A stretch of DNA of 64,000 nt, taken from assembly GCA_017347445.1 (NCBI GenBank), contig AP021856.1, forward strand, positions 434,001 through 498,000, written 5' to 3'. A program made the position numbers and the translations under genes. A model generated the notes under the pieces. The model worked only from the letters and a program-made list of their open reading frames with translations. It had not been told where the DNA came from and searched no databases. Within the stretch, counting starts at the first letter, position 1. Each line of letters starts with the position of its first letter. This document shows, piece after piece, positions 6,190 through 32,918 of the stretch. The stretch is from Candidatus Brocadia pituitae (lineage in GTDB: Bacteria > Planctomycetota > Brocadiia > Brocadiales > Brocadiaceae).

Positions 6190-6549
6190 TTACTTCTCTG
6201 CCTCACCTTCTGGCACATAGATTACCTTTCCATCTTTTAGTCGATACGCTGTCCCCAGTCGAGTGCCTTCTCCCTGTAAATTCTTGTCGGTAACTTTTTC
6301 AATTCTTATCTGTTTGCCCTTTTTGGTAACAATCTCTACCTGACCAGTATCGTTTTTCCTGACCATGGTAATTTCTGTTTTTGGAGAAAGAAAATCAAGC
6401 AGGCTGTAAGCGCTGATTAATGCGCCGATGAGGCCTACAATAAATACTACCCCCACATCAAAAAGATTAGCCACACCTGACATGGGATCTTCCTGGTGGA
6501 GATCGACTTCCTTTCCGATAATCCGGCGTCTTTTTTTCAGGTATCTCAT
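6190..6549 (-). CDS. DUF2149 family membrane protein (HmuV-like)
   Basis: The protein has about 119 aa, starting at the ATG at 6549 (MRYLKKRRRIIG); the open frame extends a few codons further upstream. One membrane helix (FDVGVVFIVGLIGALISAYSLL) is preceded by a short basic cytoplasmic end and followed by a small extracytoplasmic domain rich in Lys and Glu. I recognise it as DUF2149, whose layout resembles ExbD. In Bacteroidetes hmu loci and in several anaerobes this family follows a MotA/TolQ protein and a CobN/HmuS homolog, exactly as here. It is the last gene of the receptor-DUF4430-chelatase operon. A role as ExbD-like partner of the preceding MotA/TolQ protein is an inference. Confidence 0.75.
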   Translation of the reverse strand: MRYLKKRRRIIGKEVDLHQEDPMSGVANLFDVGVVFIVGLIGALISAYSLLDFLSPKTEITMVRKNDTGQVEIVTKKGKQIRIEKVTDKNLQGEGTRLGTAYRLKDGKVIYVPEGEAEK

Positions 6550-6606
6550 TTTGTAACAACTCCAATTCACCACAAAGCCACAAAGGGCACAAAGAAAGCC
6601 ATTAAA

Positions 6607-7233
6607 CTATTGTTCATTTTTCATAACACATTCCGTAAAATACTCAAGATTCTTTATGTCGTCATTGATCCATCTATTTTTTGCCGTTGAAAGACAATAT
6701 GCGGCGATTCCGATCGCTAATCCTACGACAGTTGTTGTAAAGGCAATGATGATATTGCTCGACAACTTTTCAAGATCCCCCTGCGATAATGCTGACAATG
6801 CCGGACCCATGGGAATTATCGTCCCCATCAAACCGAGGGTGGGTCCTACACGTATCATGAGTCGGAGTTTATCCAGACTTTTGGTCATTTTCTGTTCTTT
6901 GCTTTGCAACAGGTATTCAATACGAATCTCTCTGCCCCGTTTATCCTTTTTCAATTCGTTCACAAGTTCTCTGAAATATTCTTGAAAACAAGATGGCATC
7001 CTCTGTATCTCCTGAGAGGTAAATCTGAGGAGATTCTCATTTGAAAAGGGTTTTATAAATTCATTTGGATTTTGTTTTTGAGCTTGTCTCTTTCTCTCGA
7101 AATACTCTGAGACAAATCCTCCCAGGGTTATAATCATCCATACGAATAGGATGACCAACAGGATCATAACAGGATAGAGCATCGCTGATGAAAGGACAGA
7201 AAGAATGTTTTGTAATAGATTGAGAAGGTTCAT
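6607..7233 (-). CDS. MotA/TolQ/ExbB proton channel family protein (HmuU-like)
   Basis: The 208-aa protein starts at ATG 7233 (MNLLNLLQNILS). It has three membrane segments: near residues 10-45, 115-140 (RVGPTLGLMGTIIPMGPAL) and 155-185 (NIIIAFTTTVVGLAIGIAAY). The last two carry the conserved pore motifs of MotA/TolQ/ExbB. It lies 16 nt after the CobN-like stop and just before the DUF2149 gene, giving the order chelatase-ExbB-like-ExbD-like. It probably forms a proton-driven motor with DUF2149, energising the outer-membrane receptor or the exported chelatase. It is distinct from the second, conventional exbB at 15875-16483. Confidence 0.85.
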   Translation of the reverse strand: MNLLNLLQNILSVLSSAMLYPVMILLVILFVWMIITLGGFVSEYFERKRQAQKQNPNEFIKPFSNENLLRFTSQEIQRMPSCFQEYFRELVNELKKDKRGREIRIEYLLQSKEQKMTKSLDKLRLMIRVGPTLGLMGTIIPMGPALSALSQGDLEKLSSNIIIAFTTTVVGLAIGIAAYCLSTAKNRWINDDIKNLEYFTECVMKNEQ

Positions 7234-7249
7234 ATTCGTTGTCCCTTTA

Positions 7250-10200
7250 TTAAAATCTTTTCCTTGTCCATCCATAAATGAAAAAGCCGATGCATCCCCA
7301 CATGACTGCAATAACGACCCAAAGCCTGTTCGATTGATTAAGAGTTATTTTGCCTTCGTTCGTTTTTACCTCTTCCATCTCCAATCCTTTGACTACTTCG
7401 GCCTTTTCAGCATCTTCGTCTTCTAATTTCCATTCATCGGCCTTTGCAATCCTCTCTTTATCCGGTGTTTGTCCGACATCTTCTCTCTGTTCAACACTTC
7501 CAGGGACAGGGTTTGATACAGGCGCCTGAGCTTGAACGATCCTGTCCATCTCTGCCTTTCGTTCGTCTAGTACCTTACCGGTAGCTGTTTTTAAGACCTC
7601 CGCATACTGAATCAAGGTGTCTGGTTTTACGAGGCCAGGGGTACTCAAAATATCCGTTGCATAGTGCTGGAAGGCCGGATTATTGCAGGTTTGCACACAG
7701 CAGGCTACACCGTGTTCTATTACCGTGGTCATGTATTCCTTCGCCAGGGTTTGTTTGACTTTTTCCGTCGGCTGCCAGTAATCTTTTCGTATCGTCTCCA
7801 GCATTCTGGCCGTAACGGCTTGATACGCATAAGGGTTTTTTTTACTGAAAAATTCCTTCAAATCCATTCCGTATTTATCCTCGATGTAAACTTCAAACGT
7901 CTCTTCCCAACGGGCAGTGTCCATTGTCTCTGGCACAGTCACCTGCCAGCCCCACATGTTTTCAACAAATTCCGCCATCTTATTTGCCCCCTCAAAACCT
8001 TCCTTCTTCATTCCTTCAATCCATTCCGGATTCCAATAGCGTGACCGCAACTCCATACCCATCATCCTGTCGATCGGGGTCATTTCCGGTTTTGCTGGAT
8101 TCATTATATTGGTAATGACCAATTCGGGTGACTTTCCATCCAGTTCCCTGATTGCAGCCGCAAGCCCTCCTGCGTACATGAAAAAGTCGTCATTATCAAC
8201 CGTCCCGTACAGATTGGTAGAACGGCTGTGAACAACCATCCTGGCTCCGCTTAGCGCCATTTTATAGACATCCTCCATGGGTTCTCCCCACAAACCGTTT
8301 CCGTACCCATAACTCATCCGTTTCAGATATTCATCTGCAACTACGGCATCATCTTCCCAGGTTCCACTTGCGCTCACGATGCGTGAAACATTCAGATCAT
8401 AACGCCCGGGTGCTTCATCAAAGATTCTAACCGCTGCATATTGTTCTGCCTTCTTTTGTGGCCAGCCTTTTTGAATCAGTTTTTCGGTTACTTCCTTGAT
8501 ATGTTGTTGAATCTGGTTGTCTTTTTCATCAAGTTCTTTTACCATTTGAACGGCCTGGTCGATGTATTGGGTCAACTGTCCAAACATCTCTTCAGCCGCC
8601 GAAGAAACGACGATATCAATTCTCGGACGGCCCAACTTCTCCCTCGGTATAACCTTAATCCCCGTCACCTTCCCCCATTCATTCCAGATAGGTTCAACCC
8701 CCAGCAAATAGAGAATTTGAGATTCCAGTATCCCCTCGTGACGGATTGTTTCAGTACCCCATATAACAAAAGACAATTTCTCAGGATATTTCCCGTTATT
8801 TTTCGCCCGATAATCATCGAGTAGTTCTTGAGTCAATTTGACGCCTACCTGCCAGGCCTCTTTTTTGGGTATCTTATCCGGATTAAAGGCATAAAAGTTT
8901 TTCCCCGTAGGTAGTGAATTTGGATTTCTTACGGGGTCATTTCCGGTTCCCGTTGGTATATAGTCTCCATTCATGGCCTTGACCAGATTAGACAATTCCC
9001 TCTTTGCCCCTTCCTGGATGTTTTTGTCCAATTCATGGGCAGGGATATCTTTGATAACCTCCTGTATCGCCTGAATGGTGGACGTACGAAGCAATTCATC
9101 GGGTGCATTACCAAAGGTATGCAATCCGTAAGGCATATTAAGCTGCTTCAAATCCTGAAGATACTCTCCTATTTTATGAATGACTTCATGACCAAACCTA
9201 TGCTGGTCATCGTTTGGCGGATCAATATTCAAATGGTCACGAATTTCTATGTCTTTCTCGAGTCCCAGCGCTTTTATCTTTTTTATGATATTTTCCATGT
9301 ATTGCCTTGCAAGTGCGGCATCCTGTTCCAATGCCCGGTCATGGTCACCGATCAGTTCTTCAAGCCCGGCATATTCGTGGTAAAGTCCGCCCTTTTTTAA
9401 AGGAGGAATCATGTGGTCTATGACGACGGCTGCTCCCCGCCGTTTTGCGACAAGCCCTTCACCAACATCGTCTACAATGTAAGGATACATGACCGGCAAA
9501 TCCTGAATCAACGCCTCCGGTGGATCATCACCAGAAAGACCGTTGCTTTTCCCTGGCAGCCATTCATGTGTGCCATGTGTGCCGAAATGAATTACGGCAT
9601 CTGCGCCAAAGCCATGCTTCAGCCATAAATATGCCCCAGCATATTGATGGTGGGGGGACAGGTCTTTACTATGGTACAAGGCTTCTTTATCCTGCAGCCA
9701 GCCCCTTACCGGCTGCGGGAGGATAACAACGTTTCCCCGCCTTATTGCGGGAATAACCATATATTTCTTCTTTTGCTTCGGGTCAGTCCACATCATCACA
9801 TTCGATTCTTCAACCGTTCCCCAATCCTTGGAAACGTCTTTCATAAAATTTGCCGGTAGACTCCGCGCCCACTTTTGATATTCCTCCAGAGGCAGCAATA
9901 CACATTTCCCGTTCCTTACCATCTCTTCAAGTTCGCCTGGCGCCCAATTCCCAACGTTTCTCCCGTATCTTAGGGAATTTTCAAGCAGTGTCTCTTTATC
10001 AATTGTTTCATTGCCAACGTCATATCCATTTTCCTTCATCATCTTCAACACATTCTCGATACTGGCAAAGACATTCAGGTAACTGGCGCCGATATGTTGC
10101 TTCCCCGGTGGATAATTCCAATACAACAGGGCTACCTTTTTATCCAGGTTGTTTTTTTGCTGCAAATTGATCCAGGCCTTTATACGGTCGACAGCCCGAT

Positions 10201-11329
10201 CAATACGCTCAGGTATAGGTTTTCGTTGTTCGACAAAAAAGCCTGTTTCATCATCCTTTTCACGAGTTCGATATGAAACAACCGTAGGTTGTATAAGACC
10301 GGCAATTTCGGGAATAGCCAACTGCCAGCTTACCTCCAAAGAACTCAAACCCTCGGGATCGTTCTCCCATGTCTTTCCATCCTTTCCGTAAACGGTAATC
10401 AAATTAACCACAGGCACCCCGCATTTTTCCAGGGAGTCTGTAGCTTTGAAATCCGAAAAACGAAAGAGAAAAGACAGTATGCCAGAAACTCGTGAACCCC
10501 CTTTGGAATCCACTAATAATTTCTCAACAACGACATCCTCAGGATAGCCAAATACTACAAAGGCATTGAACCCCTTTTCTTCAATGCTACGGATCAGTTC
10601 ATCTTCAACAGATGCTTGTCCCTGCTCATAAAATGAGGAGTATGTCAGGACTGCGACCCAATCTGCATTTTCTTTCATGTAGCCTGCTTCCCGATACCAA
10701 TTCTGATATTCCTCGAATGTCTCAAAGAGTCTTTCATCCCGTTGGTAATGATAATAGGCCATCTTTAGCCCTTCTTTTGGCGGATTGACAGTAAGTTCCG
10801 GGAAGGGTAAATATTTCTTTAATGAAAGCAGGATCAAATTCTTAAAATTCCCGGCGCTTGAATACTGTAAATATGAGCGGATTTCTTTATCGTATGTTAA
10901 TCCTATGGCTGCATATTGTGAATCCAATCCGGCCGTTTCACCAACGGCAAGAACTGTTGCGCCACGGTCAATTACCTCCTTTAATACTTCAAAATCAAAG
11001 CCTGATTGAGTAGGTGTAGAGATACGGATACCGTGCACATCAAATAAGATAAGATTTGAATTGAGAATCTCGTTCGGATTGAACCCCGATTCAAGATCGG
11101 TTTTGCTTATGATTTCAAATGTAACCCGGTCTTTAAGAAAGGGGTAATCTTGCCAGATTGCTTTCATTGCCTTGACAACACTTGAGGTCATATAGTCCCC
11201 TACAATACAGGTGTATTTCACTCTATCTTCATGATGATGCTCTTCATGAACATGTCCTTCGTGGGCAAAGGAAATGTGTTGAAAAGAAAAGAGCACGGCA
11301 AACAGGATTACCAACATATGTCTCTTCAT
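7250..11329 (-). CDS. Exported, membrane-anchored CobN/HmuS-like chelatase
   Basis: This 1359-aa protein belongs to the CobN/magnesium-chelatase H family. Unlike cytoplasmic CobN it begins with a signal peptide (MLVILFAVLFSFQHISFA), followed by a His-rich stretch (HEGHVHEEHHHED) likely to bind metal. It ends with an acidic linker and one C-terminal membrane helix (LWVVIAVMWGCIGFFIYGW) with a basic tail. The family core is clear (FGTHGTHEWLPGK near residue 580; YGYGNGLWGEPMEDVYKMALSGA near 1010). The ATG overlaps the DUF4430 stop by 4 nt. This topology and gene neighbourhood match HmuS of Bacteroidetes heme-uptake loci, but the operon here sits under two cobalamin riboswitches, so a corrinoid or cobalt substrate is more likely than heme. 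No ChlI/ChlD (CobS/CobT) partner is in the window. Confidence 0.85.
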   Translation of the reverse strand: MKRHMLVILFAVLFSFQHISFAHEGHVHEEHHHEDRVKYTCIVGDYMTSSVVKAMKAIWQDYPFLKDRVTFEIISKTDLESGFNPNEILNSNLILFDVHGIRISTPTQSGFDFEVLKEVIDRGATVLAVGETAGLDSQYAAIGLTYDKEIRSYLQYSSAGNFKNLILLSLKKYLPFPELTVNPPKEGLKMAYYHYQRDERLFETFEEYQNWYREAGYMKENADWVAVLTYSSFYEQGQASVEDELIRSIEEKGFNAFVVFGYPEDVVVEKLLVDSKGGSRVSGILSFLFRFSDFKATDSLEKCGVPVVNLITVYGKDGKTWENDPEGLSSLEVSWQLAIPEIAGLIQPTVVSYRTREKDDETGFFVEQRKPIPERIDRAVDRIKAWINLQQKNNLDKKVALLYWNYPPGKQHIGASYLNVFASIENVLKMMKENGYDVGNETIDKETLLENSLRYGRNVGNWAPGELEEMVRNGKCVLLPLEEYQKWARSLPANFMKDVSKDWGTVEESNVMMWTDPKQKKKYMVIPAIRRGNVVILPQPVRGWLQDKEALYHSKDLSPHHQYAGAYLWLKHGFGADAVIHFGTHGTHEWLPGKSNGLSGDDPPEALIQDLPVMYPYIVDDVGEGLVAKRRGAAVVIDHMIPPLKKGGLYHEYAGLEELIGDHDRALEQDAALARQYMENIIKKIKALGLEKDIEIRDHLNIDPPNDDQHRFGHEVIHKIGEYLQDLKQLNMPYGLHTFGNAPDELLRTSTIQAIQEVIKDIPAHELDKNIQEGAKRELSNLVKAMNGDYIPTGTGNDPVRNPNSLPTGKNFYAFNPDKIPKKEAWQVGVKLTQELLDDYRAKNNGKYPEKLSFVIWGTETIRHEGILESQILYLLGVEPIWNEWGKVTGIKVIPREKLGRPRIDIVVSSAAEEMFGQLTQYIDQAVQMVKELDEKDNQIQQHIKEVTEKLIQKGWPQKKAEQYAAVRIFDEAPGRYDLNVSRIVSASGTWEDDAVVADEYLKRMSYGYGNGLWGEPMEDVYKMALSGARMVVHSRSTNLYGTVDNDDFFMYAGGLAAAIRELDGKSPELVITNIMNPAKPEMTPIDRMMGMELRSRYWNPEWIEGMKKEGFEGANKMAEFVENMWGWQVTVPETMDTARWEETFEVYIEDKYGMDLKEFFSKKNPYAYQAVTARMLETIRKDYWQPTEKVKQTLAKEYMTTVIEHGVACCVQTCNNPAFQHYATDILSTPGLVKPDTLIQYAEVLKTATGKVLDERKAEMDRIVQAQAPVSNPVPGSVEQREDVGQTPDKERIAKADEWKLEDEDAEKAEVVKGLEMEEVKTNEGKITLNQSNRLWVVIAVMWGCIGFFIYGWTRKRF

Positions 11330-11715
11330 TTTTGTTCTCCCTTATTATGGGTACAAACATCCTTCGTGTATTCCCACCTCATAGAGTCACCATCACTGAG
11401 AATACATCGATTGACAAAGGATGTTGCACGTTTACCGTTGATGTTGTAATACCACGCCCTGTTCCCAATTTCCATAACTGTATTATCAATAGATATAACC
11501 AAAAAATGTTCCCCATGTTTTTGCGTTTTGATCTTTGCAACAGATTGAAGCGCCTCCAGGGCAGTAATACCCTGTTTCCATGGTATCTCTACTTTACGAC
11601 TCTGTTGCAGCCCTCCGTAGTCAATTTCTACGGTTACCTGCTGGCTGGCACCGTAGGTAGCTGGCAAAAGCACAAAAACAATAAACATTCCTAGTATTCT
11701 TTTTACATGGTTCAT
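11326..11715 (-). CDS. DUF4430 (transcobalamin C-terminal-like) secreted protein
   Basis: This is a 129-aa protein with a signal peptide (VKRILGMFIVFVLLPATYGAS). A single DUF4430 domain follows: VTVEIDYGG, ALEALQSVAKIKTQKHG, then NRAWYYNINGKRAT and a closing segment DGDSMRWEYTKD. DUF4430 corresponds to the small beta domain of animal transcobalamin/intrinsic factor, which covers bound cobalamin. The start at 11715 is supported by an AAGGAG ribosome site; the reading frame runs further upstream without a signal. Placed between the receptor and the CobN-like gene, it may be a periplasmic or surface corrinoid-binding protein, a functional analogue of HmuY. Binding is inferred, not shown. Confidence 0.75.
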   Translation of the reverse strand: MNHVKRILGMFIVFVLLPATYGASQQVTVEIDYGGLQQSRKVEIPWKQGITALEALQSVAKIKTQKHGEHFLVISIDNTVMEIGNRAWYYNINGKRATSFVNRCILSDGDSMRWEYTKDVCTHNKGEQK

Positions 11716-11820
11716 TTTTTTTCTCCTTATCAATTGCGAAATAACGTGACGGGTTACCATACTGTTACATAAAGTTATCTGTCTATTTTTTTACCACCTC
11801 CTTATTCTTCTGTTTTGCTT

Positions 11821-13938
11821 TTAAAACTTAAATTCCATTCCGCCGTACACTGTAAAACCAAGGGAACCAAAACCTGTTACCTCTTCGTAACCATAATCAA
11901 AAAGATTTTCAAACCTGACATATGCGGTCATTACCTTTGTGATGTCATATCGAGTTACCAGCTCAGTGGTCCAATAGTTGTCCATTTCCTTATCATCACT
12001 GTCTATCCTGTCTCTCACCATAATGCCGGTTACATTAATATTCAATTTATCAAGGGGTTGGGTATTCATCCCAAGGGTTGCTCTGTTTCTTGGTCTGCGG
12101 GGCAATTGTTGATCTTTCTCCCGATCCCTCGTTTCAGTATAAGTATAGGTTCCCGTTAAAGAAAGTTTGGTAAATGGTTTATAGGTTAAGGCCGTTTCAA
12201 GCCCCTCTGATTCTGCGCTGGCTACATTTTCTGCCAAAAAACTTCCGTCGGGTTGTATTGCAGCCGTAATTAAATCAGTAAAATCATTCTCAAAATACGT
12301 AACATCGATGGTAAGTTTCTCTTTGAGGATTTCTTTCTCCACCCCAAAGTCCCACCCCTTACTCTCTTCCGGATTAAGATTTGGATTACCAAAGAAGGGG
12401 AAAAAAAGTTCATTTAAACTCGGCGCACGAAGACCCTTTCCCCAGGATCCATGAAGCCGGGTACCAATCTTCTCCATGTTATATGATGCCGTTGTTCTAT
12501 ACGTAAGATTGTTTCCAAAGGTGCTGTAATCGTCGTAACGTAACCCTGCGGTCCAATGTAACGATTCAAACAGTTTGATTTGATTCTGGAAGAACACAGA
12601 GTTGTTCCTAAACTGCTTATCAAAGTTACCGGCATTTTCACCCTCCTGTACCTCATATTCATAGCCTATGGTTACCGTATCGACGTCAAACAGGGTAAAG
12701 TCGGATTGATGCTCCAGTCTCCAAACTCTCGTAAGGATGCGAAACTCGCCCGATTCGTCAGTAGGGTCAAAGCCTTCCAGTTCTGTATCGTTGACTGAGA
12801 CGAGAAATGAAGGTGTCCACAGGTCAAAAAACGTTTTCTTAACCTTCGTCGAAAAAAGAACCTCATCTGTTGTCTGGTGCCGGTCAGTGTCGTCTACGGG
12901 ACCAATCCCATATTCAAATGCATCGTATTCATAATCTGAGTGAGACCCCCGTATCGTTGTGTCAACCCTTCCGTTGTCCAGGAAATTCCATCCAAGCCGT
13001 GAAGAGCCGGTAAAATTGTCGTAACCATCATCTTCACTTCCACTGCTGGCAGCGGATATTCCATGGGTTTTCAGGTATGAGCCTCCCACCGAATAATCAT
13101 ACCTTTCCTTTCCACCGGAAACGTTGACTGTTTCTCTAAAAGTATCGCGCATTCCGTATTCTGTCCCTAAGGTAACTTTGGTATCGCCTGCACCTTTTTT
13201 TGTGATAATATTGATAACACCACCAATTGCCTCAGAGCCATATAATCCACTTTGTGGACCACGCAAGATTTCAATCCTCTCAATATTATCCGTTGTAAGA
13301 TTTGCAAAATCAAACGCCCCGGTTGTAGGGCTATTCATCTGAACACCATCGACAAAGACGAGTGTCTGGGCAGCGGATGCCCCCCGTATAAACAAACTGG
13401 TAGTTCCCCCTATTCCCTGTGTTCTTGTGACCTCGAGTCCGGGCAGTTGACGCAGGACATCGAGTAATAGAGGTGCTTTGCTATTCTCAATGTCTTTTTG
13501 TGTAACGACAGACAGAGAACTACCGACATTTTTTAATAACTGTTTCGCCCTTGTCGGTGTAATCACCGTCTCTTCTTTATCATTATTGTGTTCATCCTGT
13601 GATAGATCGCCCGTGGGTATTTCCGGTGAACGTGTTTGATGCTGAGGTAATGGCTCCTTTTCAGCAACCGGTGGCAATGGTTCTATTTTAGTCTCTTCCG
13701 AACTGCTTTTTTCTTCTTCTGGTGGTAGATGCATTGCCTCTCCTGGCTTTATCTCTTCTTCTGGTTTTATTTCCTCCACAAACGCGGGTATTTCTTCCTT
13801 GTCCGGCATACGTATAATAAACCTTTCTTCCAAAAGAGGTTTCATTGGAACAGGTTCTGATATTTCTCCAGCGAAAGCAGTTTTACAATAAAAGTTATGC
13901 GCTAAAATAATCATCAGTATGATAAATGTATATTTCAT
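11821..13938 (-). CDS. TonB-dependent receptor, BtuB-like
   Basis: This is a 705-aa outer-membrane receptor. A signal peptide (MKYTFIILMIILAHNFYC) is followed by an unusually long acidic, proline-rich spacer (residues about 25-120), then a TonB-box-like segment EETVITPTRA and the plug domain (SSLSVVTQKDIENSKAPLLLDVLRQLPGLEV; IERIEILRGPQSGLYGSEAIGGVINIITKKG). A 22-strand barrel follows, ending in an aromatic residue (GGMEFKF). Plug sequence and the riboswitch control point to cobalamin or another corrinoid as ligand. It heads the operon that continues with DUF4430, the CobN-like chelatase, MotA/TolQ and DUF2149. A GAGGGGAAAGAGAG ribosome site precedes the ATG, close to the end of the proximal riboswitch. 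Confidence 0.9.
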   Translation of the reverse strand: MKYTFIILMIILAHNFYCKTAFAGEISEPVPMKPLLEERFIIRMPDKEEIPAFVEEIKPEEEIKPGEAMHLPPEEEKSSSEETKIEPLPPVAEKEPLPQHQTRSPEIPTGDLSQDEHNNDKEETVITPTRAKQLLKNVGSSLSVVTQKDIENSKAPLLLDVLRQLPGLEVTRTQGIGGTTSLFIRGASAAQTLVFVDGVQMNSPTTGAFDFANLTTDNIERIEILRGPQSGLYGSEAIGGVINIITKKGAGDTKVTLGTEYGMRDTFRETVNVSGGKERYDYSVGGSYLKTHGISAASSGSEDDGYDNFTGSSRLGWNFLDNGRVDTTIRGSHSDYEYDAFEYGIGPVDDTDRHQTTDEVLFSTKVKKTFFDLWTPSFLVSVNDTELEGFDPTDESGEFRILTRVWRLEHQSDFTLFDVDTVTIGYEYEVQEGENAGNFDKQFRNNSVFFQNQIKLFESLHWTAGLRYDDYSTFGNNLTYRTTASYNMEKIGTRLHGSWGKGLRAPSLNELFFPFFGNPNLNPEESKGWDFGVEKEILKEKLTIDVTYFENDFTDLITAAIQPDGSFLAENVASAESEGLETALTYKPFTKLSLTGTYTYTETRDREKDQQLPRRPRNRATLGMNTQPLDKLNINVTGIMVRDRIDSDDKEMDNYWTTELVTRYDITKVMTAYVRFENLFDYGYEEVTGFGSLGFTVYGGMEFKF

Positions 13939-13982
13939 TTGTTTCTCTCTTTCCCCTCGGAAGTAAGAATTGATAAAGTCGT

Positions 13983-14160
13983 GTCCAAACAGGTCTCCTG
14001 GCTTCCGGGTCTTCCTACGTCCTGCGCCTTCCCAGAAAGCCGTTTCATCAGTTTAAACCGTTTAAACGGCTTTCCAGTGGCATTGTGCAGCGTTCGTCGC
14101 CGGTTACAGTTGCGGGGCAGCTCCCGTTTCTACGGGATTCCCTGAATATTTGAACTATGA
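13983..14160 (-). promoter_or_regulatory. Cobalamin riboswitch, proximal copy (btuB operon)
   Basis: Read on the minus strand it has the cobalamin riboswitch core in order: GGGAATCC, an apical stem, GGAGCTGCCCCGCAACTGTA, the B12-box GCCACTGG, GGGAAGGC and AGACCCGGAAGCCAGGAGACCTG. The order and spacing resemble the E. coli btuB leader. Its 3' end lies about 45 nt before the receptor ATG with no terminator in between. Control of ribosome access is therefore likely (inference). Outer pairing may extend to about 14205 (CGTGTC with GACACG, GTCTC with GAGAC). Confidence 0.9.
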
Positions 14161-14240
14161 TAAATCTTAGAACATGAGACGAGACACGGATAAACGCTGT
14201 TTATCCGTGCCACCCTTTTTACGAGTAAAATTCCTCTGTG

Positions 14241-14288
14241 ATTAAATAAAAAAGCCCGTTCCTTCGTATAAAGAAGAAACGGGCTTTT
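14241..14288 (-). terminator. Intrinsic terminator between tandem riboswitches
   Basis: On the minus strand AAAGCCCGTT pairs with AACGGGCTTT across a loop that itself pairs CTTC with GAAG, followed by a T-rich run at 14241-14250. It lies about 60 nt after the distal cobalamin riboswitch and before the proximal one. It is probably the expression platform of the distal element. Confidence 0.85.
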
Positions 14289-14347
14289 ACCGCATTGTTA
14301 TCAACGCTTCACCTCCTTTACTCCGAAGAAGTATTTCCAGCACACAT

Positions 14348-14595
14348 TACAGGCAGGTCTTCTGACTTGCGGGTCATCCTACTTGTTGCGCCTTCCCGAG
14401 GAGCCGTTTAAACCGTTCAAACCGTTTAAATGACTTTCCAGTGGTTTTCGCAACGTTCGTCACCGGATACAGCGGCGGTACCGTTCCCTTTCCTTCTCAT
14501 TTCTGACGGTAAGGAATAACGTATTGATTGCCATCAGAAATTCGTTGAAGTTGGGATTTCCTTTTTATCCCGATAGATATCTCGGAATACCTGTA
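14348..14595 (-). promoter_or_regulatory. Cobalamin riboswitch, distal copy (btuB operon)
   Basis: On the minus strand it starts TACAGGTATTCCG and ends ATGACCCGCAAGTCAGAAG then ACCTGCCTGTA, giving a clear P1 (TACAGGT with ACCTGCCTGTA). The conserved interior is present: GGGAACGGTACCGCCGCTGTA, CCGGTGACGAACG, the B12 box CCACTGG, and GGGAAGGCGC. It lies between the stop of tonB (14668) and the terminator at 14241-14288, so it likely acts by transcription termination. It is a near copy of the element at 19257-19509. Confidence 0.92.
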
Positions 14596-14667
14596 TGTGA
14601 AATCTCTTGTTTAATATTGAGCTACTCAGTTACATAGTATGTTCCCCCTATATTCAAGGATAGTCCG

Positions 14668-15459: not shown

Positions 15460-15878
15460 TTTTGCAAAGGGTCTCTCTGTTTTGTCTGAATGGCAACTTT
15501 CGTGATCCCCGAAGACCTTACCTCGTCAAGTATCTGAACTGCATTACCAAAATAGGCTTCCTTGTCCCCGTTAACAAAAACCTTCATGTCGGGATTTTCT
15601 ATCTTTAATTGTTTCAAGCGTTGGGGTAAAAGGTCTAGGGCCAATTTTTCCTGATTCAGATATATATCTCCAGACTTGGCAATGGTAATGGTTACAGCTA
15701 TTTCCCGCTCCTGGGGGGTGCCCGTAGCAGCGGACGGCAAATTCACACTGATGCCCTGATTCTTGACCATGGAAAGAGAGACCATGACAAAAGTCGCCAA
15801 AAGGAAAAATATAACATCAATAAGCGGAATGATCTCTATCCTTGCCTTCCGCCTGGTTGCTGGTAGCGGTATCTTCAT
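15456..15878 (-). CDS. exbD: Biopolymer transport protein ExbD
   Basis: The 140-aa protein has a basic start, one membrane helix with the essential aspartate (IEIIPLIDVIFFLLATFVMVSLS) and a periplasmic domain with the ExbD/TolR fold (VTITIAKSGDIYLNQEKLAL; VFVNGDKEAYFGNAVQILDEVRSSG). It overlaps both exbB and tonB by 4 nt, so the three are translationally coupled. It forms the proton channel with ExbB. Confidence 0.93.
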   Translation of the reverse strand: MKIPLPATRRKARIEIIPLIDVIFFLLATFVMVSLSMVKNQGISVNLPSAATGTPQEREIAVTITIAKSGDIYLNQEKLALDLLPQRLKQLKIENPDMKVFVNGDKEAYFGNAVQILDEVRSSGITKVAIQTKQRDPLQK

Positions 15879-16483
15879 GAGTTTTTATCCTGTTTTAAAA
15901 GCAAAAGTTCGAGATGCGTGGTGGCATCCTCAATTTCATGCCTGGCTTCTTCAAGACGCGCATTGAGATAATTAAAAGGAATAAGCGCGACAATGGCAGT
16001 GATTAGTCCGTATGCAGTGGCAATTAAGGCCTCGGCAATACCCCCGGTGATAACCGTAGGCGCATCAAGTTCCCTGCCTCCCAAAAGACCAAAAGCCTGT
16101 ATCATGCCGATCACCGTGCCAAAAAGTCCCAGGAGAGGGGCAAGGGTTATAATGGTGTCAAGCACCGGAAGTCCACGGTTAAAACGTTTAAGTTCCTTGT
16201 TTGCAGCCTGCAAAAGGGCGTTTGAGAAGGCTTTGTGACGGTGGCGAAGACCGTAGACAAGGGTAGCAGCAACAAAATCATGGCATCCTTCCCCTGCCTG
16301 AATCGCCGCTTCAATTTTTCCTTGCTCGACCTCGGAGAATATCTTTCCTACCGTTTCCGGGTACCGAGATCTTTTTTCACGGATAAGAAATGCAATCCGC
16401 TCAATAATTACGGTTAGAGCCGCCAAAGATGCAACGAGGATTGGCCACATAACAGGCCCTCCTCGTAAAAATAGATGAAACAC
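15875..16483 (-). CDS. exbB: MotA/TolQ/ExbB proton channel protein ExbB
   Basis: The 202-aa protein has three membrane helices: residues about 10-32 (GPVMWPILVASLAALTVIIE), 105-130 (LDTIITLAPLLGLFGTVIGM) and 150-175 (GGIAEALIATAYGLITAIVALIP). The second and third carry the conserved ExbB pore motifs. It begins 18 nt after the stop of the receptor at 16502-18841 and runs into exbD and tonB, giving a receptor-exbB-exbD-tonB operon under the upstream riboswitch pair. Confidence 0.93.
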   Translation of the reverse strand: MFHLFLRGGPVMWPILVASLAALTVIIERIAFLIREKRSRYPETVGKIFSEVEQGKIEAAIQAGEGCHDFVAATLVYGLRHRHKAFSNALLQAANKELKRFNRGLPVLDTIITLAPLLGLFGTVIGMIQAFGLLGGRELDAPTVITGGIAEALIATAYGLITAIVALIPFNYLNARLEEARHEIEDATTHLELLLLKQDKNS

Positions 16484-18841: not shown

Positions 18842-18883
18842 CCGTATCTATTCTCCCTCGAAACATGACATGACAAAACGATG

Positions 18884-19068
18884 TCCAACCAGGTCTCCTG
18901 GCCTCCGGGTCTTCCTACGTCCTGTGCCTTCCCGGAAGGCCGTTTCATCAGTTTAAACCGTTTAAACTGATGAAACGGCTTTCCCTTGGCATTGTGCAGC
19001 GTTCGTCACTGGTTACAGTTGCGGGGCAGCTCCCGTTTCTACGGGATTCCCTGGATATTTGAATTATG
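18884..19068 (-). promoter_or_regulatory. Cobalamin riboswitch, proximal copy (receptor-exbBD-tonB operon)
   Basis: On the minus strand it shows GGGAATCC, GGAGCTGCCCCGCAACTGTA, a B12 box slightly altered to GCCAAGGG, GGGAAGGCAC, and AGACCCGGAGGCCAGGAGACC. It is a close copy of 13983-14160. The variable stem holds a perfect 19-bp hairpin (18939-18957 with 18961-18979) built around GTTTAAAC. The 3' end lies about 43 nt before the receptor ATG without a terminator. The altered B12 box may weaken binding. Confidence 0.85.
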
Positions 19069-19150
19069 ATAAATCTTAGAATATTAAGCCAGACACGGAT
19101 AAACGAAGTTTATCCGTGCCACCCTTTTTACGAGTAAAATTTCTCTGTGG

Positions 19151-19197
19151 TTTAATAAAAAAGCCCGTTCCTTCGTATAAAGAAGAAACGGGCTTTT
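19151..19197 (-). terminator. Intrinsic terminator between tandem riboswitches (second locus)
   Basis: The hairpin AAGCCCGTT/AACGGGCTT has an inner CTTC/GAAG pairing and is followed on the minus strand by a T-rich run. It is the same as the terminator at 14241-14288, and lies between the distal and proximal riboswitches. Confidence 0.85.
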
Positions 19198-19256
19198 ACA
19201 GCATTGTTATTAACGCTTCACCTCCTTTACTCCGAAGAAGTTTTTCAAGCACACAT

Positions 19257-19509
19257 TACAGGCAGGTCTTCTGACTCGCGGGTCATCCTACTTGTTGCGC
19301 CTTCCCGGAAGGCCGTTTCCGCAGTTTAGACTGTTGAAACGGCTTTTCAGTGGCTCTTGCAACGTTCGTCACCGGATACAGCGGCGGTACCGTTCCCTTT
19401 CCTTCTTATTTCTGACGTAAGGAATAATGTATTCATTACCATTGGAAATAAGAGATGGGATTCCCTTTCATTCACCATCAATCCATGAGGATTGCCTGGG
19501 ACACCTGTA
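19257..19509 (-). promoter_or_regulatory. Cobalamin riboswitch, distal copy (receptor-exbBD-tonB operon)
   Basis: On the minus strand it begins TACAGGTGTCCCAGG and ends ACCTGCCTGTAATG. It contains GGGAACGGTACCGCCGCTGTA, CCGGTGACGAACG, the B12 box CCACTG and GGGAAGGCGC. It is a close copy of 14348-14595. The region between it and the res stop codon (19560) is short, so the promoter must be within about 50 nt or lie upstream; I could not identify it. Confidence 0.92.
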
Positions 19510-19559
19510 TGTGGAATTATTTTTTTGTTTTGTGTATTACATACACTTATCCCTTCAGT

Positions 19560-22481
19560 TTAAAAAAGTGTGCCTTCAACGCGTTGTTTTGTAAGTTTCG
19601 AATATTCTAGTATCTCCTCTATAGAAGCCCCTTTTGCCTTCATACTGTAAAAAGTATTTTCACCCAAAAGTACATAAGACCAGCCACAATTACCCCGATC
19701 ATCTGGTTTTAACTCATTTATCTTCTTTGTCCAATCCAGAGCAGCCAGCTTCTTAAATAATACGTTATCATCTTTAACATCTTTCTGGGCCTTCGTTTCT
19801 ACTAAATAGATACGATCCCTTGTTTTCAGAATAAAATCAGGGTAATACGACGATAAAATACCTTCGCTTCTGATATAATTTAAGTGGGCAAAATCATGAT
19901 AAATTTCACTAATCTTAAGAAATGTTTTAATCGCACTGTCGTTGTCACATGCGATCATGAAATTCTTTTCTAATTCACCTTTATTGGATGGATATGGCAG
20001 CTTCTCATATATAGTTTTTACAATATCGAGGGAAAAATTCTCCCGCATTCTTAGTTGTTGCACTTGTGAAAAATATTGCTTTATCACCATTGCGTCCTGT
20101 ACGTCGACTGAACTCTGCATCTCATATAATGCCTTGCTGAGTTCTTTTATGATGTGCTCGGTAATGCCAGTTTGTGACAGCAAAAGCACACGCCAATTAT
20201 TATCGTCCAGAGGATTAAATTCCTGATTAAAAAGCTTATGCCTTATAAAGTCATCAATGAGTTGTACCAGGTTGGCTTGATTAATCTGCATAATGGGATA
20301 ATCTTTTGTGCTGCGCTGTGTGACCCTGACAATGGTACTGGTAATTATCTTTACCATCTTCGATAAAAACTCATTGTAGCTTTTCGCCGTAAAAAGCTCG
20401 GCCGTAACCTTGTAGTCGCCGAATCTTGTTTTTACGGTCATTTCCTCTGAGAAGAATGTTTCTCCTGCTTCACACACCATCTGTTTAAGCTGGTTAAGAT
20501 TGTACCACTGCATATTTTTTAAATTGTCCAGAGAAGGCATTACATCTTTTAAAAACTCCTCTCTTTCCTGTATTATTACAGGCCAGTACAGGTCGTACTC
20601 TTTATAATTCTGTTTGAGTCCGACTTTGATAATATCCCCTAAAATACCTTCTCTATCCCCCGGTAATTCTCTTGTTTCCCCAATGAGCCCTTCTCTTATG
20701 AGTTCGTCATAAAATTCAATAAATGCAGGGTGTTCCACTATGCTTAATAAATCTAAATAATTTATAGGCGCTTCCTTCTTTTGGAGAAGTCTTATCCTGT
20801 TTTCTTCTTTTGCGTCTTGAAATTCAGGCTCTCTCCACATCAACCGCAATCCTCTTCCAAGTATCTGCTCCAGGAGTATAGGTGCCTGTGTCGAACGTAG
20901 CGGCACAATAACACAGATATTATTCACATCAAACCCTTCTCTCAGCATTAATACCGAAACGATAACCTTTGGCTTATCATGTTTGTCGATAGTAAACAGC
21001 CTTTGTTTGATCGTGTCCCATTCCTTTGCCGGGATACTCCCTTTCTTATCAGAGTCTATCTGGACAACATCATCTTCGCCAAGACCTTCGGAATACACCA
21101 AAAATTCAGTAACATACGGGGAAACCGCTGTATCCTCGCATATTACAAGCATCTTGGGGTGTTTATCGGTAATGCCATTTTTGTCTTGTGTAAAATCGGT
21201 AAATTCTTTTTCGAGGATTTTCAGTTTTGCCAGACCTGCACGGAGCATCAATTTCTGTCCCTCTGACAGTCCTATTACTTTATTGCCATCCCTCATTGCC
21301 CTGAAATCAAGTTCCATTGTAGCAATCTCCTTGCGTCTGTCCAGGGTGATTGTCTTTACAAGCCCTCCGTGAATAGCGCTTCTCAAATCGAAATCGACAA
21401 CAATATGCGGAAAATAATGTTTTGTCCTGTGCTGACCGCCGCCCGTCACATCATAGGGTGTTGCAGAAAAATCAATTTGAATAAACTTCTTTCCCTTGTT
21501 TTCCGATATTTTATTCAACGACTTCTGCCACTCAACCTCTGAGATAATTCCTCCCTTTTTTGTCTCGTGTATATGATGTGCCTCATCATTAAAAACAACG
21601 ATACTTTCTAAATTTGCGAGATACTCAATTTCTCCACCGCTTAAATACTTGTTATCCAGGGTATTTAAATCATGTCCAGCCGAAGTGCCTGGCGTTACCG
21701 GGAATATTTCTTTTACCGCTACCGAAGGGTCTTCAAGAGGTGAAATATTGTTGTCAACATCTTCTTCCTCCTCGGCAAGCAAATGCCAGTTGGTTATGGC
21801 AATTAATCCTGTACCCGTTATCTTACGCCCAATTTCTTCCTTTCTGACAACACAGGTCTGGATGAATCCATAGATTTCATCCCTGTATGCAGGTGGGATA
21901 AACAGCTTCTCATATTTCTTAAAGTCTGAATTCTCAAAATCACGGGACCCATCTTCTTTTTGTTTTCCAAGATATGCATCCAACAATCTTTCATATACAA
22001 TCAAACCGGGGGCAACAAGCAGGAAATTCGTGGAATAGCATCCACCTGTTTTTTCTTCATGCCTTGCAGTCAAGTACTGCCAAAGAAGTAGGGCGTTCAT
22101 TACCCACGTCTTGCCAGTTCCAGTTGCCATCTTCATGCAGTACTTCGGATGGCTGAATTTATCCTTTCTCAGGTAACTTAAATCCATCTCCGCCAGGATT
22201 TCATTGCTTATCATTGAGTACAAATCAAATACGGATTCTGGCTTTAGTATTTCATGCGCATATATGGCATTTAAAATCGCCTGTCGTTGCCCTACATGAA
22301 AGTTAATGTGTCGGGTTTCCACGAAGGCATCAGAGAACCAGAATCTCAGTAAATCCTGGGTTACAGGGGTTGCTCTCGCAAGAAATTCACCGTTATCCCA
22401 CGCGATATTGACAATCTTTGTTATTTCCCGGGCAAATTTTAAGGGAATTTCTCTGGTTCCTGTGTTTAAGGATATGGACAT
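19560..22481 (-). CDS. Type III restriction enzyme Res subunit (DEAD/DEAH helicase-nuclease)
   Basis: The protein has about 973 aa, taking the ATG at 22481, which follows GGAAGGGA at normal spacing; an in-frame ATG at 22499 lacks one. Superfamily-2 helicase motifs are visible: Walker A MATGTGKTWVM, DEAH-type NDEAHHIHE, SATPYD and QILGRGLRL. The C-terminus has a PD-(D/E)XK nuclease signature (SSYYPDFIL, then YLVETKAQ). In type III systems Res translocates on DNA and cuts when two unmethylated sites are met, needing Mod for recognition. Its Mod partner upstream (24437-26645) is frameshifted, so activity of the system is doubtful. Confidence 0.9.
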   Translation of the reverse strand: MSISLNTGTREIPLKFAREITKIVNIAWDNGEFLARATPVTQDLLRFWFSDAFVETRHINFHVGQRQAILNAIYAHEILKPESVFDLYSMISNEILAEMDLSYLRKDKFSHPKYCMKMATGTGKTWVMNALLLWQYLTARHEEKTGGCYSTNFLLVAPGLIVYERLLDAYLGKQKEDGSRDFENSDFKKYEKLFIPPAYRDEIYGFIQTCVVRKEEIGRKITGTGLIAITNWHLLAEEEEDVDNNISPLEDPSVAVKEIFPVTPGTSAGHDLNTLDNKYLSGGEIEYLANLESIVVFNDEAHHIHETKKGGIISEVEWQKSLNKISENKGKKFIQIDFSATPYDVTGGGQHRTKHYFPHIVVDFDLRSAIHGGLVKTITLDRRKEIATMELDFRAMRDGNKVIGLSEGQKLMLRAGLAKLKILEKEFTDFTQDKNGITDKHPKMLVICEDTAVSPYVTEFLVYSEGLGEDDVVQIDSDKKGSIPAKEWDTIKQRLFTIDKHDKPKVIVSVLMLREGFDVNNICVIVPLRSTQAPILLEQILGRGLRLMWREPEFQDAKEENRIRLLQKKEAPINYLDLLSIVEHPAFIEFYDELIREGLIGETRELPGDREGILGDIIKVGLKQNYKEYDLYWPVIIQEREEFLKDVMPSLDNLKNMQWYNLNQLKQMVCEAGETFFSEEMTVKTRFGDYKVTAELFTAKSYNEFLSKMVKIITSTIVRVTQRSTKDYPIMQINQANLVQLIDDFIRHKLFNQEFNPLDDNNWRVLLLSQTGITEHIIKELSKALYEMQSSVDVQDAMVIKQYFSQVQQLRMRENFSLDIVKTIYEKLPYPSNKGELEKNFMIACDNDSAIKTFLKISEIYHDFAHLNYIRSEGILSSYYPDFILKTRDRIYLVETKAQKDVKDDNVLFKKLAALDWTKKINELKPDDRGNCGWSYVLLGENTFYSMKAKGASIEEILEYSKLTKQRVEGTLF

Positions 22482-22636
22482 TATGCAATTCCCTTCCATC
22501 TAGACACGGTTTTAATCACCTTGTATTCACCCTCTTTTATGTCAAACTCTGATTAAAATTCATCCAAATGCTTCTAGCTTTTATCTAAACAACTTTTTAC
22601 TAACTATTGATTTGTCAAATATTTAGAAAATTGCAT

Positions 22637-31498: not shown

Positions 31499-31831
31499 CT
31501 ATTTCTCATAGAAAAGTCTTCGTACATTAAATCCAATGACAAATCCCCCAATAACCCCGGCAAGAGTAAATACAAAAAGAAGCAGATCTCCCTGATCAGT
31601 ATTAATATAAGGATCTCGCGGCGGACGGCCGTATTTCGATGCATATTTACCTACAATGCTTACATCAATACCCGTCCATGCCCCTTCTTCATCTGTTTGT
31701 ATTGCTGATGCATCAGTTTTGTGCGTAGTATCTTCTGCAAATGACAATAACGATGCGGAAAGAAATACCAATATGACAAGGATAATAAAAGGGATGATAG
31801 CTACCTTACGTCCCGATGGATTTTGTGTCAT
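31499..31831 (-). CDS. CbiN-like cobalt transport accessory membrane protein
   Basis: The 110-aa protein has two membrane helices (IIPFIILVILVFLSASLLSF near residues 12-31 and LLLFVFTLAGVIGGFVIGF near 83-101) separated by a hydrophilic loop exposed outside. Topology, size and position between cbiM and cbiQ match CbiN, the small component that assists substrate loading. The sequence is only loosely like classical CbiN, so the name rests mainly on context. It overlaps the cbiM stop by about 26 nt. Confidence 0.75.
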   Translation of the reverse strand: MTQNPSGRKVAIIPFIILVILVFLSASLLSFAEDTTHKTDASAIQTDEEGAWTGIDVSIVGKYASKYGRPPRDPYINTDQGDLLLFVFTLAGVIGGFVIGFNVRRLFYEK

Positions 31832-32585
31832 CTCTGATTACTCCAAGGTTGAACAAAATGCCTGGACGTCGTTTGTAAATAAAGACCATCACGAATCCCA
31901 CTACCGCACCTTCAACAATGCAGAGGACGCCCTGCGAGGTCATCATAAAAACCCCAAAGATTTCCGCAGTAGCTTGCAAGAAAGACCCACCTTTGTTGAT
32001 TACGAGAAGTCCCAGCTCAATGGACGTGCCTAAATAGGTAAATAAATCAGAAATCGTACCGGCAAGGAATCCGCACCAAAACAGTGGCAATTTACATCGC
32101 TGCGCTATTTTAAAGGCAAAATAACCTGAAAATGACCCCAGGATGCCCATGGAGAATATATTTCCACCGAGCGTAGTCAATCCACCATGGGCAAGGAATA
32201 ATGCCTGGATGAGTAAGGCAATGCCAGCCACCAGCACACTGACAAAAGGTCCCAGCAACACAGCGCTCATGCCCGTGCCGCATGGATGAGAAGTTGCCAT
32301 TCCATTCAGGGCAATAACCGGAATGGGAAAACAGGAAAATACAAATACCGCAGCTCCCAACATGCCTACCAAAGGCAGATAACTTGGCACAGCTCTCTTC
32401 TTTCGCTTTATATGATATATGCCAATTCCCACAAAGGGGGCAGATACGGCAAACCACACAGCAACCCACTTGAGGGGCAAAATCCCCTCGGTGATATGCA
32501 TTGCATAAACCACATTTTCTGATGCAAAAAATAACAATAAAAAAACTATGCTAAATAAAATTATTACCCTTCTCAGATATCGCAT
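31806..32585 (-). CDS. cbiM: Cobalt ECF transporter substrate-binding protein CbiM
   Basis: This is a 259-aa membrane protein. After a cleavable leader (VIILFSIVFLLLFFASENVVYA) the mature chain begins MHITEGILP, the hallmark in which the new N-terminus and His2 bind Co(II). Further conserved segments are GMATSHPCGTGMSAVLLGP and FLAHGGLTTLGGNIFSMGI. A CbiM with CbiN-like, CbiQ and CbiO specifies cobalt uptake. The gene follows a cobalamin riboswitch and terminator, so expression should fall when B12 is plentiful. Confidence 0.95.
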   Translation of the reverse strand: MRYLRRVIILFSIVFLLLFFASENVVYAMHITEGILPLKWVAVWFAVSAPFVGIGIYHIKRKKRAVPSYLPLVGMLGAAVFVFSCFPIPVIALNGMATSHPCGTGMSAVLLGPFVSVLVAGIALLIQALFLAHGGLTTLGGNIFSMGILGSFSGYFAFKIAQRCKLPLFWCGFLAGTISDLFTYLGTSIELGLLVINKGGSFLQATAEIFGVFMMTSQGVLCIVEGAVVGFVMVFIYKRRPGILFNLGVIRDDTKSIGT

Positions 32586-32865: not shown

Positions 32866-32918
32866 AAAATTATAAGAAACCTTCACCTTCTTTACCATCG
32901 AAGACAACGTGAAGCAAC

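What the first reader, a model, noticed from the sequence alone, without database searches (positions are those of the whole stretch)
6190..13938. HmuS-like exported chelatase module placed under B12 control
Receptor, DUF4430, signal-peptide CobN/HmuS homolog with C-terminal anchor, MotA/TolQ and DUF2149 are in the order of the Bacteroidetes hmu heme locus. Two cobalamin riboswitches head the operon, which argues for corrinoids or cobalt as substrate. An extracytoplasmic CobN-like enzyme could insert or remove cobalt from imported tetrapyrroles in the periplasm. The DUF4430 protein, whose fold is the cobalamin-capping domain of animal B12 carriers, would be the corrinoid binder. I consider this the most promising candidate for an undescribed system in the window.
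Basis: partly seen in the sequence, partly recalled or inferred. Interest (0 to 1): 0.8.

Follow-up and report, generated by a model that had tools for sequence, protein, structure and literature searches.

The report
B12-controlled exported cobalt chelatase machine
Anammox bacteria carry, behind two vitamin-B12 RNA switches, an outer-membrane B12-type receptor plus an exported relative of the enzyme that handles cobalt in B12, paired with a proton-channel motor; it looks like a cobalt- or corrinoid-scavenging counterpart of the gut bacteria's heme-iron extractor, and I found no characterised member of its branch.

Summary
In detail: in a closed Brocadiales (anammox) genome, two RF00174 riboswitches head BtuB-type receptor, DUF4430, exported CobN homologue, ExbB-like protein and DUF2149. 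"HmuS-like" needs correcting: the protein lies in the sister clade of HmuS, lacks HmuS's second catalytic His, heme-site His and Met-rich insertion, and has the CobN-type motif (VDNDDFF, like LDSDDYY). The riboswitch link recurs in nearly all Brocadiales loci and on a Trichlorobacter plasmid, but not at HmuS-clade loci. DUF4430 is predicted to fold like transcobalamin's cobalamin-capping domain. Best reading: a periplasmic, probably proton-motive-force-driven class I chelatase for imported corrinoid or cobalt complexes, more likely releasing cobalt for CbiMQO than inserting it. Prior art: BtuS (2003), G. lovleyi cobN cluster (2012), HmuS (2025). Substrate and direction are inferred.

The parts
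14335..14608 (-). first cobalamin riboswitch (RF00174) of the module
   Evidence: cmscan 73.0 bits, full model
14250..14288 (-). intrinsic-terminator-like hairpin with T run between the two aptamers
   Evidence: scan, -23.4 kcal/mol; same layout in all 12 tandem pairs tested
13971..14168 (-). second cobalamin riboswitch, ending 33 nt before the receptor ATG
   Evidence: cmscan 87.2 bits; sequence
11821..13938 (-). BtuB-type TonB-dependent receptor (TBDT1)
   Evidence: best PDB match E. coli BtuB, E 2e-45, residues 122-696; TIGR01779 313.6 bits, below its cut-off 599.7
11326..11715 (-). secreted DUF4430 protein, transcobalamin beta-domain fold
   Evidence: PF14478 E 1.2e-8; predicted model, Z 11.3-12.4 to transcobalamin, haptocorrin and intrinsic factor
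7250..11329 (-). exported, C-terminally anchored class I chelatase (CobN superfamily, BtuS type); His585 in HFGTHG, Asp1047/Asp1048 in VDNDDFF
   Evidence: PF02514 1049.8 bits; motif and tree
6607..7233 (-). MotA/TolQ/ExbB-like proton-channel subunit (HmuU type)
   Evidence: PF01618 E 3.3e-15; pore residues kept
6190..6549 (-). DUF2149 (HmuV type), one TM helix with invariant Asp34
   Evidence: PF09919 101.8 bits; Asp invariant in 32 of 32
19244..19523 (-). first riboswitch of the companion operon
   Evidence: RF00174 74.3 bits
19160..19196 (-). terminator-like hairpin of the companion leader
   Evidence: -22.5 kcal/mol
18871..19107 (-). second riboswitch of the companion operon
   Evidence: RF00174 62.5 bits
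16502..18841 (-). second TonB-dependent receptor (TBDT2)
   Evidence: PF00593/PF07715; weak plug match to BtuB
15875..16483 (-). ExbB
   Evidence: PF01618
15456..15878 (-). ExbD
   Evidence: PF02472
14668..15459 (-). TonB
   Evidence: PF03544
32906..33117 (-). fifth cobalamin riboswitch, heading cbiM-cbiQ-cbiO-cobD-cobQ
   Evidence: RF00174 94.1 bits; ORFs
31806..32585 (-). CbiM, cobalt importer component of the CbiMQO set (30 to 32.6 kb)
   Evidence: PF01891 164 bits; CbiQ PF02361 137 bits

Best explanation
A B12-repressed cobalt/corrinoid scavenging system that works in the periplasm. Shown by sequence: riboswitches, BtuB-type receptor, exported chelatase, ExbB-like/DUF2149 pair, companion ExbB-ExbD-TonB, riboswitched CbiMQO. 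Inferred: when B12 is low the switches open; the receptor, energised by the neighbouring ExbB-ExbD-TonB, brings a corrinoid or other cobalt chelate into the periplasm; the DUF4430 protein binds it; the membrane-anchored class I chelatase takes it into its CobN-type site (His585, Asp1047/Asp1048); the ExbB-like/DUF2149 pair uses the proton-motive force to do the conformational work that the AAA+ partners (ChlID, CobST) do for cytosolic homologues; cobalt is released and taken up by CbiMQO for de novo cobamide synthesis. Separate confidences: B12/cobalt theme 0.85; the pair powers the chelatase rather than the receptor 0.55; net direction is metal release rather than insertion 0.45.
For: B12 control conserved in Brocadiales and in T. 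lovleyi and L035. Receptor closest to BtuB. DUF4430 predicted with the cobalamin-capping fold. Motif VDNDDFF as in CobN LDSDDYY, not HmuS LSLDHVYEF. Exported CobN with ExbB-like/DUF2149 at 53 distinct loci, AAA+ at none; cytosolic CobN/ChlH loci 0 of 7 with the pair, 5 of 7 with AAA+. DUF2149 within about 5 kb of CobN in 27 of 29 Planctomycetota genomes that have it. Pair present with CobN in Methanosarcina acetivorans, which has no outer membrane. True ExbB-ExbD-TonB present as well. Host has no BtuC/FecCD but has riboswitched CbiMQO, CbiX, CbiB and CobQ. T. lovleyi has the same set 9 kb from riboswitched CbiMNQO. A DD-type relative with a weakly NicO-like membrane protein lies inside a hyp (nickel hydrogenase) operon in Runella.
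Against: No biochemistry exists for this branch. Cobalt corrins resist removal of cobalt without loss of the corrin (PMC6771967). Many loci of the same clade lack RF00174. DUF2149-ExbD homology is not significant by profile or fold. Linkage of the families in Methanosarcina was not checked. The purified soluble part of HmuS converts heme without HmuUV (PMC12583661), so a stator is not needed for that reaction. Absence of an unknown inner-membrane corrinoid importer cannot be shown.
Confidence: 0.42

Rival explanations
1. Periplasmic cobaltochelatase: the same machine inserts cobalt into metal-free or incomplete corrinoids captured from outside; the finished corrinoid then enters the cell by an unidentified route.
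For: CobN-type motif at the site where HmuS has His1209; CobN inserts cobalt; some purple sulfur bacteria make cobalt-free corrinoids (PMC6771967), so a substrate exists; insertion is chemically easier than removal; a His-rich stretch (HEGHVHEEHHHED) follows the signal peptide and could collect metal (sequence).
Against: The host has no BtuC-type permease to use the product and already inserts cobalt in the cytosol (CbiX); does not explain the hydrogenase-linked relative.
Confidence: 0.25
2. Carrier, not catalyst: the chelatase fold has become a periplasmic corrinoid-binding scaffold, and the ExbB-like/DUF2149 pair is a second energiser of the outer-membrane receptor, as proposed for HmuUV.
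For: HmuU/HmuV have been read as the TonB energiser of HmuR (PMC10100974 and PMC12583661); DUF4430 and BtuB-type receptor are binding and transport proteins.
Against: Superfamily His585 and the CobN-type Asp pair are kept; complete ExbB-ExbD-TonB is present next door or in the same operon; the pair occurs with CobN in an archaeon without outer membrane; the pair tracks exported CobN, not receptors.
Confidence: 0.18
3. Heme de-chelatase: an HmuS that happens to be under B12 control.
For: Best PDB match by sequence is HmuS 9D26, E 4e-146; same exported topology and hmuUV-type neighbours.
Against: HmuS His1209 is Asp, His254 is Phe, no Met-rich insertion; separate, well-supported clade; BtuB-type receptor; no HmuY; five of five riboswitches around it are cobalamin ones.
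Confidence: 0.05

Closest known systems
Bacteroidota hmuYRSTUV with the HmuS heme de-chelatase (PMC12583661, PMC13227078)
   Same: Receptor, exported N- and C-terminally anchored class I chelatase, ExbB-like and DUF2149 genes in one operon; superfamily HFGTHG motif
   Different: Sister clade; His1209 to Asp, His254 to Phe, no Met-rich insertion, no HmuY, no HmuT; DUF4430 and BtuB-type receptor; cobalamin riboswitches instead of iron control
Cobalamin-associated cobN-exbB-exbD-tonB cluster of Geobacter (Trichlorobacter) lovleyi plasmid pSZ77 (PMC3403914; L089)
   Same: Tandem RF00174 with terminator between, receptor, ExbB-like, DUF2149, exported DD-type CobN, ExbB-ExbD-TonB, second receptor, riboswitched CbiMNQO nearby
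   Different: Has DUF2162, no DUF4430 annotated; gene order differs; 40.5% identity of the chelatase. Role stated as unknown in 2012
[quoted passage not shown] 2003, as cited in PMC6460266)
   Same: CobN-like, periplasmic and membrane-anchored, distinct from CobN and ChlH
   Different: BtuS was proposed for metalloporphyrin salvage and tested only for heme iron; the 2003 paper could not be read here
Cytosolic cobaltochelatase CobNST and Mg-chelatase ChlHID
   Same: PF02514 fold family; CobN shares the DD motif
   Different: Those are cytosolic and use AAA+ ATPases; this one is exported and comes with a proton-channel pair
Transcobalamin, haptocorrin and intrinsic factor beta domain
   Same: Predicted fold of the DUF4430 protein, Z 11.3-12.4, rmsd mostly 2-3 A over 91-99 residues, next unrelated fold Z 7.0
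   Different: Stand-alone secreted domain without the alpha barrel; 9-16% identity; ligand contacts not tested
ExbB/ExbD, TolQ/TolR, MotA/MotB stators
   Same: ExbB-like subunit in PF01618 with pore residues kept; DUF2149 has one TM helix with an invariant Asp, topology as in ExbD
   Different: DUF2149 has a short C-terminal domain of its own; tied to CobN rather than to TonB or flagella

Membership tests
HmuS heme de-chelatase | HFG(T/A)HG motif with catalytic His538 (shared by the superfamily) | tested here: met
   HFGTHG at 581-586
HmuS heme de-chelatase | LSLDHxxEFMGG with His1209 and Glu1212 | tested here: not met
   TVDNDDFFMYAGG; His1209 aligns with Asp1048, Glu1212 with Met
HmuS heme de-chelatase | His254 of the Met79/His254 heme site | tested here: not met
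   Phe at the aligned position; Met79 lies outside the aligned stretch
HmuS heme de-chelatase | Met-rich insertion in domain IV | tested here: not met
   HmuS residues 646-892 face only query 696-739
HmuS heme de-chelatase | groups with HmuS in a tree | tested here: not met
   sister half of the exported clade
HmuS heme de-chelatase | removes iron from heme | not testable with these tools
   needs enzyme assay
CobN of CobNST cobaltochelatase | CobN-type motif (DxDD) opposite the superfamily His | tested here: met
   VDNDDFF against LDSDDYY of 9UK9
CobN of CobNST cobaltochelatase | cytosolic, no membrane segments | tested here: not met
   signal segment and C-terminal TM helix in window and relatives (sequence)
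CobN of CobNST cobaltochelatase | AAA+ partner (CobST or ChlID) | tested here: not met
   no AAA+ at the locus; no ChlD over cut-off in the genome; CobT not searched
BtuS-type exported CobN | exported CobN homologue separate from CobN and ChlH | tested here: met
   all exported homologues form one clade, SH-aLRT 100; original definition not readable
Cobalamin riboswitch RF00174 | score over gathering threshold | tested here: met
   73.0 and 87.2 bits against 31.5
BtuB | NCBIfam TIGR01779 cut-off | tested here: not met
   313.6 bits against 599.7, although the best solved relative is BtuB over the full length; so BtuB-type, not filed as BtuB
Transcobalamin-type capping domain | fold | tested here: met
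   Z 11.3-12.4
Transcobalamin-type capping domain | cobalamin-contact residues and binding | not tested
   contacts not compared; binding needs experiment
ExbB/ExbD-type proton stator | ExbB-type pore subunit | tested here: met
   PF01618 E 3.3e-15; pore Pro, Gly and Thr kept
ExbB/ExbD-type proton stator | DUF2149 homologous to ExbD/TolR | tested here: inconclusive
   TM Asp invariant in 32 of 32 and aligned to the ExbD Asp, but hhalign probability 1.2; low-confidence model without a significant fold match

The most novel reading that the evidence does not exclude
A proton-motive-force-driven decobaltase: an exported CobN relative that takes cobalt out of imported corrinoids, powered by an ExbB-like/DUF2149 stator in place of the AAA+ ATPase, so that the cell mines foreign B12 for its metal.
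Probability: 0.22. Interest if true: 0.9.

Novelty: new variant of a known kind. Interest (0 to 1): 0.64.

Why it matters
Most CobN-annotated proteins outside three characterised families have no known function (PMC12583661). The data here split the exported ones by an active-site motif that follows genetic context (heme, B12, nickel), tie them to a dedicated proton-channel pair, and show that this pair and the AAA+ ATPase exclude each other according to compartment. That makes two questions directly testable: can class I chelatases run on proton-motive force, and can an enzyme move cobalt into or out of a corrin outside the cytoplasm? It also contradicts the reading that HmuV (DUF2149) is diagnostic of heme transport (PMC10100974).

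Tried and rejected
Heme de-chelatase identity: rejected on motif, tree and receptor. Weak RF00174 in L021, L028 and L030 (E up to 1): none found. DUF2149 structure: model of low confidence and no significant fold match. Profile match DUF2149 to ExbD: not significant. DUF4430 by sequence against the PDB: no match; only the fold comparison worked. The weak FecCD hit of the host is an ABC-3 (ZnuB-like) permease next to its own ATPase. Two further CbiQ-like genes in the genome sit with a NikR/CbiM-type metal importer (L087) and beside cbiA and cbiB (L088); no vitamin-type ECF set was seen, but BtuM and BacA-type importers were not searched. The set in Methanosarcina could be checked only for presence of the families, not linkage. 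Literature searches found no paper on CobN in anammox bacteria and no cobalt de-chelatase in the open-access library.
Full report
What is there. The window lies in a closed 4.08-Mb genome whose closest named relatives are Candidatus Brocadiaceae. On the minus strand two RF00174 aptamers (14335-14608, 13971-14168) are followed by a BtuB-type receptor, a DUF4430 protein, an exported CobN homologue, a MotA/ExbB-like protein and DUF2149. Just upstream a second tandem riboswitch pair heads receptor 2, ExbB, ExbD and TonB. The fifth and last RF00174 of the genome, at 32906-33117, heads cbiM, CbiQ- and CbiO-like genes, a CobD-like aminotransferase and CobQ. So all cobalamin riboswitches of the genome sit in one 20-kb stretch that joins cobamide synthesis, cobalt uptake, two receptors and this module. 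The genome has a single CobN/ChlH-family gene.

The control region looks like a two-stage gate. Between the two aptamers lies a strong terminator-like hairpin with a T run (14250-14288), and the second aptamer ends 33 nt before the receptor start codon. The arrangement aptamer-terminator-aptamer is found in all 12 tandem pairs examined: both window pairs, eight other Brocadiales loci, L035 (Myxococcota) and T. lovleyi. In most of them the second aptamer ends close to a start codon; L004 and L013 carry another terminator-like hairpin after it. A transcriptional gate followed by a translational one is inferred from this layout, not shown.

Conservation. The CobN homologue has 36 relatives with named records in genome contigs. 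In Brocadiales the order receptor-(DUF4430)-CobN-ExbB-like-DUF2149 with upstream RF00174 holds in nearly every locus with enough upstream sequence; L014, with pilus-type genes upstream, is the exception. In several loci ExbB-ExbD-TonB genes are interposed or DUF4430 is missing (L008, L013, L015). One closed genome of the family (G248) has lost the unit, leaving receptor 2-ExbB-ExbD-TonB intact and a 47-residue remnant of DUF2149, so the unit is dispensable. Outside Brocadiales the riboswitch link recurs in L035 (tandem), in T. lovleyi (tandem) and, at a divergent receptor gene beside the set, in L023, L026 and L029. It is absent at many other loci of the same clade (L016-L022, L025, L027, L028, L030, L034, L037, L073, L075, L090).

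Which chelatase is it? Alignment with HmuS, CobN and ChlH and a maximum-likelihood tree (quick method, SH-aLRT support) put all exported homologues in one clade (support 100) next to cytosolic CobN and ChlH. Inside it, HmuS and its Planctomycetota and Bacteroidota relatives (L062, L067, L091, L095, L096; motif LSLDHVYEF) group with two further types (LSNHHAYEY and LSNKYDWY); the window falls in the other half, most of whose members have LDNDDFF or a close variant. The three HmuY-linked plasmid loci are all LSLDH; the B12-riboswitch loci of the window's branch are all of the DD type. Azospirillum (LSTDHPF, with RF00174 heading the next operon, L092) and L068 do not fit neatly. The window protein keeps the superfamily His (His585 in HFGTHG) but has Asp1048 for HmuS His1209, Phe for His254, and no Met-rich insertion. 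At that motif it resembles CobN (VDNDDFF against LDSDDYY). It belongs to the same superfamily and may work in a comparable way, but it is neither HmuS nor CobN in the CobNST sense.

What powers it? Class I chelatases of the cytosol use AAA+ partners. A count over the loci gives a clean exclusion: the ExbB-like plus DUF2149 pair at 53 distinct exported-CobN loci (54 counted, two from one genome) and at 0 of 7 cytosolic loci; a ChlI-type AAA+ ATPase at 5 of 7 cytosolic loci and at no exported one. Exported loci without the full pair are cut by contig ends. In a Kuenenia-family relative (G195) both forms coexist: L052 has cytosolic CobN, a ChlI/VWA ATPase, FecCD, a binding protein, a receptor and ExbB-ExbD-TonB, while the exported copy on contig C85 has the pair. 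DUF2149 is found in 29 of 294 Planctomycetota genomes and in 27 of them within about 5 kb of a CobN homologue; the other two are a case of short contigs (G049) and the G248 remnant. All 32 DUF2149 proteins aligned keep one Asp in the single TM helix, as ExbD does, though homology to ExbD is not significant by profile comparison. The ExbB-like proteins keep the ExbB pore residues. The pair has been read as the TonB energiser of the heme receptor. Two facts speak against that: true ExbB-ExbD-TonB are present beside or inside the same operons, and Methanosarcina acetivorans, which has no outer membrane (established knowledge), rings for CobN, DUF2149, MotA/ExbB and DUF2162. The inference is that the pair is a proton-motive-force motor for the exported chelatase.

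What does it act on, and in which direction? B12 control, a receptor closest to BtuB and a DUF4430 protein with the transcobalamin capping fold point to corrinoids or cobalt. The closed host genome has no FecCD/BtuC permease (the weak hit is an ABC-3 permease), so an imported corrinoid has no known way into the cytoplasm, while a riboswitched cobalt importer and de novo synthesis genes (CbiX, CbiB, CobQ) are present. This parallels heme: HmuS frees iron in the periplasm and FeoB imports it (PMC12583661). The Runella plasmid adds a nickel case: receptor, a weakly NicO-like membrane protein, ExbB-like, DUF2149 and DD-type CobN lie between hypB-hypF and hypC-hypD-hypE. For hydrogenase maturation only release of nickel would make sense. 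Against release stands chemistry: cobalt corrins resist loss of cobalt (PMC6771967). I therefore put metal release at about 0.45, insertion at 0.25, carrier role at 0.18 and heme at 0.05, and note that the substrate could be a cobalt complex more labile than a corrin. In L015 the stretch between receptor and CobN also holds a Fer4 polyferredoxin and an HGD-D-type protein, which would suit a reductive step.

Novelty. The class was foreseen (BtuS, 2003, as cited), the heme member is solved (2025), and the T. lovleyi cluster was noted in 2012 with unknown role. New here, as far as the held literature goes, are the motif-and-context split, the stator/AAA+ exclusion, the link to a host without BtuC, the two-stage riboswitch leader and the nickel-linked relative. 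I rate it a new variant of a known kind.

Noticed in passing
window 13971-14608 and 18871-19523; L003, L004, L008-L010, L012, L013, L024, L035, L089: Tandem cobalamin riboswitches always have a strong terminator-like hairpin between them, and usually the second aptamer ends near the start codon: apparently a transcriptional gate followed by a translational one.
   Followed up: partly
L090 (Runella slithyformis plasmid pRUNSL01) 3001-11035: Receptor, weakly NicO-like protein, ExbB-like, DUF2149 and DD-type exported CobN lie inside a hyp hydrogenase-maturation operon, which suggests a nickel version of the system.
   Followed up: partly
L052 1928-12530 (Kuenenia-family relative G195:C49): Cytosolic CobN with ChlI/VWA ATPase, FecCD permease, binding protein, receptor and ExbB-ExbD-TonB: the cytosolic counterpart in a genome that also has the exported module.
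   Followed up: yes
L065, L066, L069-L071 and L060, L074: Two further exported CobN types with motifs LSNHHAYEY and LSNKYDWY, with the ExbB-like/DUF2149 pair, of unknown substrate.
   Followed up: no
L077 99-4557, L099 2118-6820, L101, L102: In other Brocadiales the tandem cobalamin riboswitches head or include an OprB-like porin and a YNCE/YVTN beta-propeller protein; the propeller could be a corrinoid binder like BtuG (from memory, untested).
   Followed up: no
L015 5529-8862: Between receptor and CobN: a DUF4198-like protein, a membrane Fer4 polyferredoxin and an HGD-D-type protein, possibly an electron supply for a reductive step.
   Followed up: no
L088 2772-3578 (G000:C1 near 2264047): A lone EcfT-like membrane protein between cbiA- and cbiB-like genes, with no ATPase or S component seen beside it.
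   Followed up: no
L097 (G248) 2851-2991: A deletion of the whole module leaves a 47-residue DUF2149 remnant next to the intact TonB gene.
   Followed up: yes
window 19560-26645: Type III restriction-modification-like genes (res-like 19560-22499; mod-like in two overlapping frames 24437-26014 and 25881-26645) with an AlbA/ATP-binding-like gene separate the B12 receptor operon from the cob operon (reading of the ORFs).
   Followed up: no
window 59745-59866: c-di-GMP-I riboswitch, 56.2 bits, upstream of the ORF at 59932-60450.
   Followed up: no
window 7250-11329, N-terminus; L003, L008, L009, L013, L014, L015: A His-rich stretch (HEGHxHEEHHH) follows the signal peptide in many Brocadiales copies but not all, possibly a metal-collecting segment.
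   Followed up: no
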